A stretch of DNA of 64,000 nt from Rhodobacteraceae bacterium HLUCCO18 (GTDB lineage Bacteria; Pseudomonadota; Alphaproteobacteria; Rhodobacterales; Rhodobacteraceae). Position numbers and translations under genes: made by a program. Shown piece by piece: positions 58 through 9,769 of the stretch (position 1 is its first letter; every line of letters begins with the position of its first letter). The notes below the pieces were generated by a model, which was given only the letters and a program-made list of their open reading frames with translations, did no database searches and was not told the DNA's origin. The DNA lies in contig LJSY01000021.1 in assembly GCA_001314805.1 (NCBI GenBank), positions 1-64,000 of the forward strand, in the 5' to 3' direction.

Positions 58-987
58 TCAGCTCAAAAATGGCAGGAGGGGGTCGACGTTGCGCTTACGA
101 CGATCCATCCATGCACAAATAATCAAAGTGAGGACGAAAGCTGCTTGATTGATAAGAGTCTGCTTCCAGTCACTTTCGGTTTCGCCCGAATGAATTGCCA
201 CCTTTAGGCTGGCAAATCCTTGCTCTGCCTCCACAGAAACAAACTGAGCAAGTGCAAAGACTCCCACCATTGCAAACAAGACGAGCCCAAAGCATCGCCT
301 CCAAAAGAAAGCTGGGTTATGAAGAAGCATCAACACGAACGACCCAAAACCAGTCATGGCGGTTGCTGCCAGGCGGGCATCAAGAGTCCAAGAGGCCGGG
401 ACAAGAAGTAGCCATGTTATGAGACACGATGCCAATCCCACTCCAGCAGAAATCATGAACCATGCAAAGGAATTATTACGTCTCGCAACTTCTCCAGCAG
501 CAATTCGTTCGCGATGGCGCGCTGTCATCTCTATTTGGAGGTTTTGTTGAAATTCTGGGTTGTCTGTCCAAATGCGGTTGAACTCGTGTCCCGGAACTTT
601 AAGGGCGGCGACTTCATCTGTCAGTGCGTATACGCTTGCCGATCTTTTTCTTCCGAGCTCGATCGCTGCCATCTCGCCGACTTGGTTCGGAGCAACGCGC
701 TTTGAACCAAGCTGGCGCCGGAAAACGATATCCACCTCACCGGACAGAAGGAAATATACATCATTGTCCTGACCGCCTTCATGTATCAAGCAGTCGCCCT
801 TGCGAAAAAACACAACCTCGCCATGATTTATTAATCCGTCCAAAATGGACAAGTTGCCTCGAATTGCCCGGTTCTCACGAAGCGTTTGCCTGACAAGGTC
901 AGCCGCGCTGTCCCCGGAGAACAGCCCAGGCAGTTTGGCTTCATTTTCCCGCCCAATAATTTTCTTTAGCTTCGCCGACCAATACAT
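58..987 (-). CDS. Cyclic-nucleotide-binding domain protein with C-terminal transmembrane helices (Pycsar PycTM-like candidate effector)
   Basis: cNMP-binding cassette 'VGEMAAIELGRKRSASVYA' matches the CRP/PKA phosphate-binding cassette (GE...RSA.V); hydrophobic helices follow (FAWFMISAGVGLASCLITWLLLV, LAATAMTGFGSFVLML, CFGLVLFAMVGVFALAQFV, AAFVLTLIICAWM). Overlaps the WYL gene by 22 nt. Confidence 0.78.
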   Translation of the reverse strand: MYWSAKLKKIIGRENEAKLPGLFSGDSAADLVRQTLRENRAIRGNLSILDGLINHGEVVFFRKGDCLIHEGGQDNDVYFLLSGEVDIVFRRQLGSKRVAPNQVGEMAAIELGRKRSASVYALTDEVAALKVPGHEFNRIWTDNPEFQQNLQIEMTARHRERIAAGEVARRNNSFAWFMISAGVGLASCLITWLLLVPASWTLDARLAATAMTGFGSFVLMLLHNPAFFWRRCFGLVLFAMVGVFALAQFVSVEAEQGFASLKVAIHSGETESDWKQTLINQAAFVLTLIICAWMDRRKRNVDPLLPFLS

Positions 988-1841
988 TCGTCTACTTCTT
1001 CCAGATTTTTGATACAGAGTGAAAAGCTACTCTTGTTGCGGATCATGCCTTCTTCAGTTTCGTGAGGGTTAAATCCATAAAAGCGCAGGTAGTAAAACAG
1101 CATCGCTTGGCGCACTTTTAGCAAGAGCTCTCCGCTGCTCATGTTATATTCAATCTCCAGACGTTCGCGCTGCCTATCACTGAGAGCTGGATCAGACTGC
1201 AAGCGTAAATCTACGATATTCGACCACTCTTCGTCTCTTGGAGGCTCTTGATCGTTACCTTTCTTGGTCGCAATTTTTTCAATGCGCGAAAGTACAAAGT
1301 CTGAATGGCGGTTCTTGTCCCCGTCGAAAGCCCGCATGTGCCAGCGGTGGCCATCGCTGGCAATCGCATGCGGGTATAGGCGACGGGGAGAATCCGACTC
1401 TGAACTTAAAGAATCATACATGACCTCTACGCAGTGGCGATCACGAATTGCCCGGAGCACAGTCTTCAGGGTAACGGGATCGATCTTGCGCGAAGAGGCC
1501 ACCACCGCGTCGAATTGAGGGACACTTGCAGGCCATATTTCATCAGCGGCGCGGTAGCCGTGATGCAGCATCTCCAAGTGTTGAAGGTACTCTGCCGCCT
1601 CTCCTTCGACGAAGGCCGGGCGAAAGTTGGACCGAGCTACGTATGTTCTCTGGCGCGGATCGTACGCCATGTTCTTCGGCACCAAGTCGAGGTAGGAAGT
1701 GAGGTCCAGCGTTGCTTGCTGTAGGGAGATTTCGAACTTATCTTTGAGAAGCTTCCGTCCGACCGTACCCTCCCACATGAGCTGGAACTCAATAAATTCA
1801 TAGCGTTTTCGTTGGCTTGGCTTGATGGTCTCGTGCTTCAT
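966..1841 (-). CDS. WYL-domain transcriptional regulator (CapW/BrxR-like)
   Basis: Likely start MKHETIK at 1841. wHTH-like N-terminus and WYL-like core 'CVEVMYDSLSSESDSPRRLYPHAIASDGHRWHMRAFDGDKNRHSDFVLSRIEKI'. Divergent from the cyclase gene. Confidence 0.82.
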   Translation of the reverse strand: MKHETIKPSQRKRYEFIEFQLMWEGTVGRKLLKDKFEISLQQATLDLTSYLDLVPKNMAYDPRQRTYVARSNFRPAFVEGEAAEYLQHLEMLHHGYRAADEIWPASVPQFDAVVASSRKIDPVTLKTVLRAIRDRHCVEVMYDSLSSESDSPRRLYPHAIASDGHRWHMRAFDGDKNRHSDFVLSRIEKIATKKGNDQEPPRDEEWSNIVDLRLQSDPALSDRQRERLEIEYNMSSGELLLKVRQAMLFYYLRFYGFNPHETEEGMIRNKSSFSLCIKNLEEVDECIGRRS

Positions 1842-1865
1842 GGTGGCCTTGTCCTCCCTCCGAAA

Positions 1866-1909
1866 GACTAGCATATTGACAAATGCTGTAATAGTCCTAA
1901 AATATAGGA
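1866..1909 (+). promoter_or_regulatory. Sigma70-like promoter (TTGACA 1876-1881, N16, TAAAAT 1898-1903) overlapped by inverted repeats; candidate WYL operator
   Basis: Read directly: GACTAGCAT...ATGCT-gtaa-TAGTC (1866-1874 / 1883-1896) over the -35 box; TCCTA-aaata-TAGGA (1895-1909) over the -10 box. Confidence 0.55.
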
Positions 1910-1970: not shown

Positions 1971-3572
1971 ATGGCCTGGAACGAAGCAACAGCGCTTGCG
2001 CGCATCAACAAGCTGAAGGGGGAGGCTCCGGATTTCGACGTTCAGCGTTTTGAAGATTACAAGCGTCTGTATGAGGCCGACATGGCGATCCGTGCAGCGA
2101 GAGATCAGCCCACCACGCCGCCGCTGTTCAGCTTGCCAAGGGGCAAGGCCGTGGTGGTTGACACCGTGCAAATCTACATCGCGATCACCAACTATGACGA
2201 CTTTCGCCTTGAGGAAGGCCGCGAGACGGAAGCCTCGCACGAACGCGCCATGCGGCTCTTGCACCTCTACTACAGCGCGGCTGACCGGGCGATCGAGGCA
2301 TCCGCAGCGCAGCGCGTGGATTTCCATAGCGGCCGCGTTCACGCCGTTGTGCTGGAGCGCGGAAAGCAGGGTGTCAGCCGCGACACTGTAGCTGAGGCCC
2401 TCGCTTTCGTTGATGACTTCAAGCGGGTTGCCGACGCGGCGAACCGCGAGCTTGCCAAGAGCGAGTTCACCGCAGAATTTCGAATCGGCATCGACGTGGG
2501 CACTTGCGTCGCCATCAACAACGGAACGGGCTGCGAACAGGAACCCATGTTCCTTGGCAGCGCTGCCAATCACGCCGCGAAACTGGCCTTCGGCAAAGAG
2601 CCAGGCGTCTTTGTTTCTGACCGCGTGCGGGCGCTTCTCAACCTCCAAGAGTTCGGTGTAATCAGCGAATTTGTGGGCCTCTCCGAGACCGATATTGCCG
2701 TGAATGCAGCGCGCCAGGACGCAGGCGGGCATCTGGTGTTCGGCGTTCAGGATCGCCAGGCTTACACGCAGGATTTGGTGGCCAACTGGAAAGATGAAAT
2801 CCGGCGTGGTGAGTTTCCGAACTTCACCGACCCTAGCTTCAGCTTCTCTCACAGGGAGCCGCCGCTCCGCGAGATCGATTATGCTGAGCTTTCGCCAAGC
2901 CGCTCGATCCGCATGCCCTTGGTCTCAATGTATGCCGACCTCTCCGGGTACACCGATTACATCGATAAAGCTGTCGCGTCTGGAGGAATTCGTGAAGCAG
3001 TCCGCGCGCTTCACGTGATCCGGCAAGAGTTCCAGAACGTGGTGGAGAAGGATTTCGGCGGTCGGAAAGTCAGGTTCATCGGAGACTGCATCCATGCACT
3101 CATCGCCGAAGGAACCCGCACCGAGACCGATGAACGCAAAACTGTATCCTCGGCAGTGCAGTGTGCTGGCGGTCTTCATTCGTCATTCGGTCTGTGCAAG
3201 CTCGTTCTTGGCAACCTAAATAGTCTGGGACTGGCCATCGGTCTGGAGCTAGGGCCGACCCCGATTTCCCGGATCGGTATCCGCGGGGATCGGTCCGTGC
3301 GTGCGGCATCCAGCATCGCAACCACGCTCTCGGAGCAGATGCAGCGCGAATGCAAGGACAACGGCGTCAAACTTGGCCATCGCGCCCTGCGCGTTGCTCC
3401 TGTGGCGCTAGAAGACCTGCTGGATAAGGACGGATATGCCGCCAGTATGGACTATGACGATGTGGCCGTCTGCCTGTCGGTTGTTCCGGCGCAGGTTTCC
3501 AGCCCGAATTACGCCAGAGCGCACGTTCCTAGCCAGTCCCCTCAGCCTCGGGCACATTTCAAGCCCGAATGA
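1971..3572 (+). CDS. Tandem class III nucleotide cyclase (Pycsar PycC-like)
   Basis: C-terminal domain has 'PLVSMYADLSGYTDYI' and 'VRFIGDCIHALIAEG' (two metal Asp). N-terminal domain has 'VVDTVQIYIAITNYDDF', 'FRIGIDVGTC' and 'MFLGSAANHAAKLA' (transition-state-like Asn). Confidence 0.85.
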   Translation: MAWNEATALARINKLKGEAPDFDVQRFEDYKRLYEADMAIRAARDQPTTPPLFSLPRGKAVVVDTVQIYIAITNYDDFRLEEGRETEASHERAMRLLHLYYSAADRAIEASAAQRVDFHSGRVHAVVLERGKQGVSRDTVAEALAFVDDFKRVADAANRELAKSEFTAEFRIGIDVGTCVAINNGTGCEQEPMFLGSAANHAAKLAFGKEPGVFVSDRVRALLNLQEFGVISEFVGLSETDIAVNAARQDAGGHLVFGVQDRQAYTQDLVANWKDEIRRGEFPNFTDPSFSFSHREPPLREIDYAELSPSRSIRMPLVSMYADLSGYTDYIDKAVASGGIREAVRALHVIRQEFQNVVEKDFGGRKVRFIGDCIHALIAEGTRTETDERKTVSSAVQCAGGLHSSFGLCKLVLGNLNSLGLAIGLELGPTPISRIGIRGDRSVRAASSIATTLSEQMQRECKDNGVKLGHRALRVAPVALEDLLDKDGYAASMDYDDVAVCLSVVPAQVSSPNYARAHVPSQSPQPRAHFKPE

Positions 3573-4363
3573 GCGGACTCAACCAACTACTCCAGACCGT
3601 TCCGCATTGGGCGAGTATCGAGGACAAGGAACAGGTGGCGGCGACCGTGTTAGTCTCGCCGCCTGGCGCCCGTGGGCTGAACTCGGGCGGGTTCTGGCTG
3701 ACGCTTGAGGCTTCAAAGCATGGTGGCGTTGCTGTCAAAGAGGTGCAGGATAAGCGCCAACTTCCTGAGTTTTGTCTCGAACGCCACATCAATTCTGACA
3801 GCACATTCTGCGTTTTCTTCCGTTCCGAATATCCGCTGGAGGACTCAGAGGCCGCCAAGACATGGTGGTCTTACCTAGGAATTTACCTCAGCAACCAGCT
3901 CTATGCACAAAGACGAGGCATTTGGCCGCTAGGTTCCGGCCTGAGCCACGGCGAAGCGGCGCATGTTCAGGTCGCCATGGAAGCTCTGGCCGAGCCTTTG
4001 GGATGGAAGGACGATCTGTGGCTTGCGATGTTTCGCGGCAAAGGGTGGCTGGCCAAACCCTTGCCACGCATATCCAGGCAGCGCGACCGCGTCTTGAATG
4101 CGCGCTCGCCCTGTCCACGAGGTTGCACGTGGAAACATAAACTCTTGCGTAAAGAGTCGTGCAGGACTCCCTCTTGCCTTTCAGGATGCAATCGGCTTCA
4201 TAAGCCGATCTTGCGGGCCGAGTGCCCGAATAGAACAACTATCGAGGAATTGGTTTTGCATGAACATGAGCGGCAACGTATGGAATCGGAAATTATTGAC
4301 GATCTGAGAAAGGAAGGAAAAGTTTGCTGCGGCACGATGGAACGCTGCCCGCTAAAATCATAA
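3569..4363 (+). CDS. E2-like, cysteine-rich protein encoded directly after the cyclase
   Basis: 'LPEFCLERHINSDSTFCVFF' resembles the H-x-x-x-D-G-x-x-C core of prokaryotic E2-like folds; 'AKTWWSYLGIYLSNQLYAQRRGIWP'; Cys-rich C-terminus (CPRGC...C....C..C......ECPN...CC.....C). ATGA overlap with the cyclase stop. Confidence 0.6.
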   Translation: MSGLNQLLQTVPHWASIEDKEQVAATVLVSPPGARGLNSGGFWLTLEASKHGGVAVKEVQDKRQLPEFCLERHINSDSTFCVFFRSEYPLEDSEAAKTWWSYLGIYLSNQLYAQRRGIWPLGSGLSHGEAAHVQVAMEALAEPLGWKDDLWLAMFRGKGWLAKPLPRISRQRDRVLNARSPCPRGCTWKHKLLRKESCRTPSCLSGCNRLHKPILRAECPNRTTIEELVLHEHERQRMESEIIDDLRKEGKVCCGTMERCPLKS

Positions 4364-8473: not shown

Positions 8474-9769
8474 TTAATTTGGCTCAATCCCACGGTGACG
8501 CGGGCGCTCGCGCTCTGCGCGGCGTTCGGGCTGCGGCTGCGGATTCCTGTCCGGCACGCGGCGCAGTTCCATGGCCCGCGCGACATCACGGTTCAGCGCC
8601 TCGATGGAGCGCTGCTGCTTTTCCTTCGCGGCTGTGATCTGTCGTTGCAGTGTCCGGCGTTCGGAAAGCTGGCGCTGGATGATCTCGTGCTTTTCGTTTC
8701 GGTCACGCTGCTGCGCACGCGCCATGTCGGCTTCGTTTTCCTGCCTGATCTTCCTGTTCTTGCCGGTAACCCAGCCCCAGAGGCCGCGAATGCCCTTCGG
8801 CGTTCGCTCAGCGCGCCTCCGCTCTTCGGCCAGCCAGCGCTGCTCTTGTTGCTGGCGGAGCTGGGCGCGCAGGTGACGGTGGCGCTGCACCATCTGGTCA
8901 CGCTGGAATTTCGCGGCGAGGTTCTGTTTCTCGGCGAGCGCTTCGGCCTCTTTCGCCCAGACTTTGAGCTTGGGCGTCATCCGCTCGCCGATGTAAGCCT
9001 TGGCCTGATCGGTCGATTTCAGCTTGCCGGGATCGCCGAGACGGGCTTGCATTGCCTTGGTCTTCGCGCCGGTGGCCCGAGACAAGGAATAGACTTCGCC
9101 CCGCCAGTCCACCGCGACATAGCCGCGCCGGTCGCCTCTGGCGAGGATGTAGCCCCGTTCCTTGAGAGCACTCTCAAAAGCCTGGCGATTATCAGAGGAA
9201 TCCCAACAGGAACGGAACATTTCTTTCAGGGCCTTCGGGTCTTGCCGCGTGCGCCGGGCTTGCTGCCATTCCTCCAGCGTGAAGCCGCGCGGATCACGCG
9301 CGCCCCGGTCCTTAAAGCCTTTTGGCATCTCCCAGCCATGTTCGCGGTAGAGCTCGCGGGCGATACCGTTCAGCGCGCGTTTGTAATGCGGCAGGTTGAT
9401 CGCCTTCATCTCTTCGCCGTCGATCCGGCTCCAGACGGCGTGGGCGTGCCTGCGGCCTTCCTTTTCGTGGAAGACAATGGCGCGCGGCTGGCCCTCAAGA
9501 CCAAGCTCGCCCTCGATCCGGCCTATGGCCGCCTCGAACACTTCAGCGCGGACGCTTTCGTTCTGGGGCGGGTTCAGGCTCAGCGAGAACAGGTAGTTCT
9601 TGCAGCGCGTGCCCTTGGCGATGGCCTCGCTTTCCTGCATCGCCCCATGCAAGTCATCGGCGGCGAAGCCGCGCAGGTCGTGAAGCTCGATATGTTCGTT
9701 TTCCCGGCCCTTCATGAGATGATTGGCCAGCTCGCGCCCGTTCCCGCGCTCATTGCCCTTCAGGATCAT
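8474..9769 (-). CDS. Relaxase/mobilization nuclease-domain protein (MobA/VirD2-type)
   Basis: 'MILKGNERGNGRELANHLMKGRENEHIELHDLRGF...LFSLSLNPP...AIVFHEKEGRRHAHAVWSRID' carries the HxH relaxase motif (HAHAVW). Confidence 0.88.
   Translation of the reverse strand: MILKGNERGNGRELANHLMKGRENEHIELHDLRGFAADDLHGAMQESEAIAKGTRCKNYLFSLSLNPPQNESVRAEVFEAAIGRIEGELGLEGQPRAIVFHEKEGRRHAHAVWSRIDGEEMKAINLPHYKRALNGIARELYREHGWEMPKGFKDRGARDPRGFTLEEWQQARRTRQDPKALKEMFRSCWDSSDNRQAFESALKERGYILARGDRRGYVAVDWRGEVYSLSRATGAKTKAMQARLGDPGKLKSTDQAKAYIGERMTPKLKVWAKEAEALAEKQNLAAKFQRDQMVQRHRHLRAQLRQQQEQRWLAEERRRAERTPKGIRGLWGWVTGKNRKIRQENEADMARAQQRDRNEKHEIIQRQLSERRTLQRQITAAKEKQQRSIEALNRDVARAMELRRVPDRNPQPQPERRAERERPRHRGIEPN

What the first reader, a model, noticed from the sequence alone, without database searches (positions are those of the whole stretch)
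1971..3572. Tandem cyclase with complementary degenerate domains: one predicted composite active site
Seen: the C-terminal domain keeps both metal-binding Asp positions (MYA-D-LSGYT; FIG-D-CIHAL) but its transition-state motif is altered (GDRSVRAASS). The N-terminal domain has the first Asp (VVDTVQ) but Arg where the second is expected (DFHSGRVHAVV), and keeps an Asn-x-x-x-Lys motif (GSAANHAAKLA). Inference: an internal pseudo-heterodimer analogous to mammalian adenylyl cyclase C1/C2, unlike homodimeric two-site cyclases.
Basis: partly seen in the sequence, partly recalled or inferred. Interest (0 to 1): 0.7.

Follow-up and report, generated by a model that had tools for sequence, protein, structure and literature searches.

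The report
E2-linked tandem Pycsar cyclase
The gene is a known type of anti-phage alarm enzyme (a Pycsar uridylate cyclase made of two fused halves sharing one working site), and its less familiar feature is that it is always followed by a ubiquitin-conjugation-like gene that its conserved tail looks built to serve.

Summary
The 533-aa ORF at 1971-3572 is a clade A PycC, the cyclase of the Pycsar anti-phage system. It is homologous over both domains to PaPycC (PDB 6YII). The predicted single composite site holds across 30 homologues. The C domain gives metal ligands D323 and D372. The N domain gives N200 and K204, plus H119 and R122, which align with the uridine-recognition residues D94 and R97 of BcPycC. 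Two details need correction: the second metal position in the N domain is Gly121 (Arg is one residue later), and the N-domain Asp64 is not conserved. NxxxK is the normal PycC motif. The composite site is therefore a trait of a described clade.

The less expected result lies next door. The next gene (3569-4363, 4-bp overlap) encodes an E2-like protein. Every tandem PycC found (28 plasmid records, 8 further genomes) has a linked E2 or E1-E2 gene, with or without JAB. The PycC C-terminus co-varies with the module: E2-only systems carry [RKTQ][AP][HY] plus 2-10 residues (26 of 27), while the E1-E2/JAB tails seen end in GF[SA]. I infer that the cyclase tail is the E2 substrate, as in type II CBASS. 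This is untested, and key primary papers were not readable here.

The parts
1971..3572 (+). Tandem-domain (clade A) PycC, 533 aa, predicted uridylate cyclase
   Evidence: PADLOC PycC PDLC00762 593 bits; phmmer to 6YII E=8e-70 over residues 44-503
2319..2336 (+). N-domain D117-F-H119-S-G121-R122: base-recognition segment; metal position 2 is Gly121
   Evidence: D117, H119, R122 invariant in 30/30; register to BcPycC D94/D96/R97 by hand from the alignment
2568..2582 (+). N-domain N200-xxx-K204, transition-state motif in PycC form
   Evidence: 30/30 invariant; same form in BcPycC
2937..2939 (+). C-domain D323, metal ligand 1
   Evidence: 30/30
3084..3086 (+). C-domain D372, metal ligand 2
   Evidence: 30/30
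3270..3320 (+). C-domain position of the transition-state motif, lost (only R444 kept)
3516..3524 (+). Upstream copy of the tail motif (R516-A-H518)
   Evidence: Present in most Rhodobacterales and sphingomonad members
3549..3557 (+). C-terminal tail motif R527-A-H529, followed by F-K-P-E and stop
   Evidence: [RKTQ][AP][HY] within the last 16 aa in 26 of 27 E2-only homologues; shuffles mean 1.6, max 6; synonymous codons vary
3569..4363 (+). E2-ntca + E2-Crich protein, 264 aa; overlaps the PycC stop by 4 bp
   Evidence: Pfam PF20298 E=6e-17, PF20272 E=3e-14; PADLOC E2 462 bits
3773..3775 (+). E2 Cys69, invariant
   Evidence: 28/28
3809..3811 (+). E2 Cys81, candidate catalytic Cys in P..C.eRHIN....FC
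   Evidence: 28/28; catalytic role inferred by analogy with the E2 HPN...C motif
966..1874 (-). CapW/BrxR-type WYL repressor, divergent
   Evidence: WYL PF13280; phmmer to CapW 9c5g E=2e-48
58..987 (-). Effector: cyclic-nucleotide-binding domain plus hydrophobic C-terminal segments (PycTM-like)
   Evidence: PF00027 E=2e-11; PycTIR CNBD 8jsk E=1e-15; PADLOC Effector 497 bits; hydropathy segments 173-203 and 226-255

Best explanation
This is a four-gene Pycsar anti-phage operon on a mobile element: CNBD-transmembrane effector, CapW-type repressor, clade A tandem PycC and an E2-like protein. PycC folds as an internal pseudo-heterodimer with one working site: the C domain holds the two metals (D323, D372), and the N domain supplies base recognition (H119, R122, possibly D117) and the transition-state pair (N200, K204). 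Its likely product is cUMP, which would gate the effector. The E2 most likely acts on the PycC tail: its Cys81 would attack within or just after R-A-H529, remove the last residues, hold PycC as a thioester and pass it to lysines, raising cyclase output as E2 and Cap2 do for CD-NTases in type II CBASS. Shown here: homology, residue conservation, gene linkage, tail motif and its co-variation with module type. Inferred: product, catalysis, tail cleavage and activation.
For: Family: PADLOC and 6YII matches. Composite site: invariant complementary residues in 30 homologues, register to BcPycC. Linkage: all 28 plasmid records with a tandem PycC have a linked E2 or E1-E2 gene (one of them, H11, judged from its near-identical match to H10); all 8 further genome loci have E2. 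Conversely, the 21 plasmid records hit by the window E2 all carry tandem PycC, and in 299 phylum genomes E2-ntca occurs in 3, the same three that carry tandem PycC. 33 plasmid records have a BcPycC-like single-domain cyclase; the window E2 is found only in those that also carry tandem PycC. Tail: 26/27 against shuffled mean 1.6, 8 of 9 clusters at 60% identity; E1-E2/JAB systems instead end GFS, GFS, GFA. CBASS precedents: Cap2 uses the extreme C-terminal Gly/Ala of cGAS (PMC10097602), and an E2 modifies prokaryotic cGAS at Y405 (table in PMC12135389).
Against: No activity, product or conjugation was tested. The motif was defined after seeing the tails, so the shuffle test overstates its significance; L051 departs from it (RSH). 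The E1-E2/JAB class rests on three complete tails and one cut by a contig end (L068). The Agrobacterium E1-E2 member ends RHA, not GF[SA]. Both AlphaFold models were low confidence, so neither the site geometry nor the E2 fold was verified by structure. The window E2 has no detectable relative in the PDB.
Confidence: 0.7

Rival explanations
1. The E2-Crich protein conjugates some other modifier or acts as a phage-sensing adaptor, and the conserved PycC tail is only a docking peptide that is not cut.
For: Cys69, Cys81 and the Cys-rich domain are invariant, but the tail motif could equally be a non-covalent binding peptide; the duplicated RAH copies fit multivalent docking.
Against: No ubiquitin-like protein gene is annotated beside these genes in the loci opened. 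The tail of E1-E2/JAB systems ends at a small residue at the stop, as expected for an activated carboxyl end.
Confidence: 0.3
2. Mammalian-type pseudo-heterodimer whose degenerate second site is a regulatory ligand pocket (like the forskolin site), which is the main control point.
For: R444, R368 and several other C-domain residues stay invariant although the second catalytic site is lost.
Against: No ligand is known; the invariant residues may be structural.
Confidence: 0.15
3. The tail motif is conserved only because its DNA overlaps the ribosome-binding region of the E2 gene.
For: The motif lies 12-20 nt before the E2 start codon in most loci.
Against: Codons for R, A and H vary freely (CGG, CGC, AGG, AGA, CGT, CGA; CAT/CAC), the motif persists where the genes do not overlap (L050, L058), and an upstream copy lies about 30 nt further away.
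Confidence: 0.05

Closest known systems
PaPycC, clade A Pycsar cyclase of Pseudomonas aeruginosa (PDB 6YII)
   Same: Two consecutive cyclase domains, same complementary residue pattern, matched over residues 44-503; E2-ntca/E2-Crich ORF directly downstream in the plasmid locus L009
   Different: Effector there is PycTIR, not a membrane protein; no CapW in L009; tail ends VQPHSRQKVDGSR
BcPycC, clade B homodimeric Pycsar cyclase (PDB 7R65)
   Same: Metal Asp pair, base-recognition Arg, NxxxK motif
   Different: One domain per chain, two equal sites, no tail motif in related companions, no E2 linkage of its own
Type II CBASS with Cap2 (E1-E2) and Cap3 (JAB), and its E2-only short form
   Same: Nucleotide cyclase followed by E2 or E1-E2 (with or without JAB) genes; C-terminal residue class follows the module (PMC10097602; table in PMC12135389)
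   Different: CBASS cyclase is a cGAS/DncV-like nucleotidyltransferase; here it is a class III cyclase fold
Mammalian adenylyl cyclase C1/C2
   Same: One catalytic site from two unequal class III domains
   Different: Here the metal domain is C-terminal and the base/transition-state domain N-terminal; soluble; pyrimidine-type motifs

Membership tests
Pycsar clade A PycC | Sequence homology to PycC models | tested here: met
   PDLC00762 E=1.5e-178
Pycsar clade A PycC | Two consecutive cyclase domains in one chain | tested here: met
   Homology to 6YII over both domains; clade A definition in PMC11224242
Pycsar clade A PycC | Metal-binding Asp pair | tested here: met
   D323 and D372, 30/30
Pycsar clade A PycC | Synthesis of cUMP from UTP | not testable with these tools
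   Inferred from clade (PMC11224242)
Pycsar system | Adjacent cyclic-nucleotide-binding effector | tested here: met
   58-987 minus strand, CNBD plus hydrophobic segments
Pycsar system | Phage defence in cells | not testable with these tools
   Needs experiment
Type II CBASS | cGAS/DncV-like nucleotidyltransferase | tested here: not met
   Cyclase is a class III (Guanylate_cyc PF00211) protein
Type II CBASS | E2 or E1-E2 (with or without JAB) gene with the cyclase | tested here: met
   E2-ntca here; E1-E2 and JAB in homologous loci
CapW/BrxR regulators | WYL domain protein related to solved CapW | tested here: met
   9c5g E=2.4e-48
Active E2 enzymes | Catalytic Cys in E2 fold | tested here: inconclusive
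   Cys81 and Cys69 invariant 28/28; AlphaFold model too poor to place them

The most novel reading that the evidence does not exclude
Clade A Pycsar cyclases are obligate partners of a ubiquitin-like conjugation module, and in E2-only systems the E2 cleaves the cyclase tail at an [RKTQ][AP][HY] motif to form a thioester without E1 or ATP (a sortase-like reaction), so PycC serves as its own modifier; E1-E2 systems use an exposed C-terminal Ser/Ala instead.
Probability: 0.4. Interest if true: 0.8.

Novelty: new variant of a known kind. Interest (0 to 1): 0.5.

Why it matters
The composite site is known for clade A. The E2 linkage would mean that ubiquitin-like conjugation of the alarm enzyme through its own C-terminus arose in two unrelated cyclase folds, and that Pycsar loci treated as two-gene systems, including the P. 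aeruginosa type, may lack their activator. It gives a precise tail motif that can be mutated.

Tried and rejected
AlphaFold2 of PycC (4 sequences, pLDDT 42) and of E2 (3 sequences, pLDDT 40) were too poor to use; Foldseek still ranked 6YII first, but with TM 0.36 and rmsd 19.8, so it says nothing on domain arrangement. phmmer and profile searches of E2 against the PDB found nothing credible. NCBIfam gave no match for the cyclase. A whole-genome search of 386 class genomes with the PycC model mostly returned ordinary class III cyclases at weak E-values; only strong hits were used. Papers that would settle priority (the 2021 Pycsar paper, the 2015 nucleotide-centric survey, the 2024 lone-E2 CBASS paper) are not held. 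Of the 18 held papers with both Pycsar and ubiquitin, I checked passages in four; none links an E2 to Pycsar. A ribosome-binding-site origin of the tail motif was considered and rejected on codon variation.

Full report
What was claimed. The finding describes a tandem cyclase at 1971-3572 with complementary degenerate domains and one composite active site. The ORF is there (533 aa) and its motifs are as quoted.

What it is. PADLOC PycC models match it full length (593 and 560 bits). phmmer against solved structures gives PaPycC of Pseudomonas aeruginosa (6YII) at E=8e-70 over residues 44-503; a profile of 18 homologues matches 6YII over nearly its whole length, though that profile contains a close relative of PaPycC. 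[quoted passage not shown] The protein is thus a clade A PycC.

Active site. I aligned 30 tandem PycC proteins from plasmids and genomes. Invariant in all: D323 and D372 in the C domain; D117, H119, R122, H124, N200 and K204 in the N domain. Using the alignment of BcPycC (7R65) with the single-domain companion cyclase of L007, I counted BcPycC residues by hand: Y50, D52 (metal), D94, D96 (metal), R97, matching the base-recognition residues Y50, D94, R97 named in PMC11224242. In that register N-domain H119 corresponds to D94, G121 to D96 and R122 to R97. So the N domain has lost metal position 2 (Gly, not Arg) and keeps the neighbouring Arg that in BcPycC recognises the base. D64, the proposed first metal Asp of the N domain, is D, H, Q, N, K or E among homologues. 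NxxxK is the normal PycC form (BcPycC AANYAAKL). The C domain has lost the Asn of that motif. One site is complete (C-domain metals plus N-domain base and transition-state residues); the other lacks both halves.

Neighbours. Divergently upstream are a WYL protein related to solved CapW (9c5g, E=2e-48) and an effector with a cyclic-nucleotide-binding domain related to PycTIR (8jsk, E=1e-15) followed by hydrophobic segments. Directly downstream, overlapping the PycC stop by 4 bp, is an E2-ntca/E2-Crich protein. Further on are an ArdC-type protein and a relaxase, and the closest homologues lie beside conjugation genes on plasmids, so this is probably a mobile element.

E2 linkage. A tblastn of the cyclase in 72,556 plasmids found 28 records. 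A tblastn of the E2 found 21 records, all among those 28. In the other seven, two (Methylobacterium, Acinetobacter) have E2-ntca/E2-Crich genes too diverged or split for that search, and the rest have E1-E2 genes: Agrobacterium L008 (shown) and A. salinitolerans H11, which I did not open but which matches the cyclase with the same score as H10; Mesorhizobium L052 and Cupriavidus L059 with JAB; Sphingobium baderi L069 with JAB. I did not open H11, H12, H14, H15, H17 and H27 individually; for all but H11 the evidence is the E2 tblastn hit close by in the same record. The P. aeruginosa plasmid p382 has the E2 ORF downstream of pycC (domains); it is missing from the PLSDB gene table, which is known to be incomplete. 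Eight further genome loci all have E2. In 299 genomes of the phylum, E2-ntca was found in three, the same three that hold tandem PycC. BcPycC-like single-domain cyclases occur in 33 plasmid records, mostly without E2.

Tail. E2-only PycC proteins end in a short motif, [RKTQ][AP][HY] followed by 2-10 residues, in 26 of 27 (the 27th is RSH); shuffled tails give mean 1.6 and at most 6 of 27 in 2000 trials, and the background in the rest of the proteins is 4% per 16 residues. Clustering at 60% identity leaves 8 of 9 clusters with the motif. The pattern was chosen after looking, so these numbers are indicative. Codons vary synonymously. Many members carry a second copy about 8-13 residues upstream. 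The three complete E1-E2/JAB tails end GFS, GFS and GFA, and a viral-contig relative ends DGFA at the contig edge; the Agrobacterium E1-E2 member ends RHA. Companion single-domain PycC lack the motif. E2 Cys69 and Cys81 are invariant in 28 of 28.

Mechanism. In type II CBASS, Cap2 forms a thioester with the C-terminal Gly/Ala of cGAS, and conjugation raises cGAMP output (PMC10097602). A review table lists an E2-dependent modification of prokaryotic cGAS at Y405 that promotes activation (PMC12135389); from memory, that study also reported processing of the cGAS C-terminus. By analogy, the lone E2 here would cut PycC after the H/Y of the tail motif, while E1-E2 systems would activate the native C-terminus. 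This is inference.

Novelty. The composite site is known for the clade. I found no held paper linking E2 to Pycsar, but read only passages, and the founding papers are not held. PADLOC has E2, E1-E2 and JAB models that fit these proteins full length, and the Pfam name E2-ntca might itself stand for a nucleotide-cyclase association, so the gene linkage may already be noted. The tail motif and its co-variation with the module are what I could not trace to any source.

Noticed in passing
L005:3427-4119, L007:4855-5553, L047:2425-3117, L049:3243-3935, L050:8277-8990, L054:3163-3864: A BcPycC-like single-domain cyclase sits near the tandem PycC and E2 in several loci (two-cyclase Pycsar islands); whether the two cyclases cooperate is unknown.
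   Followed up: partly
L008:4887-5987: A cyclic-nucleotide-binding domain fused to a cyclase domain in one 367-aa protein lies directly upstream of the tandem PycC and E1-E2 genes.
   Followed up: partly
L043:662-1848: A relative genome keeps an intact E2 gene next to a PycC remnant of about 129 aa.
   Followed up: no
L052:6542-9660 and L069:1796-4966: Tandem PycC followed by E1-E2, JAB and TIR genes: a full Cap2/Cap3-like set on a class III cyclase.
   Followed up: partly
window:4831-5775 and 8474-9769: ArdC-type anti-restriction protein and MobA/VirD2-type relaxase close to the operon, indicating a mobile element.
   Followed up: partly
L054:3867-4786: In a Xanthomonas plasmid the CNBD and TIR parts of the effector are annotated as two adjoining genes, possibly a split or broken PycTIR.
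   Followed up: no
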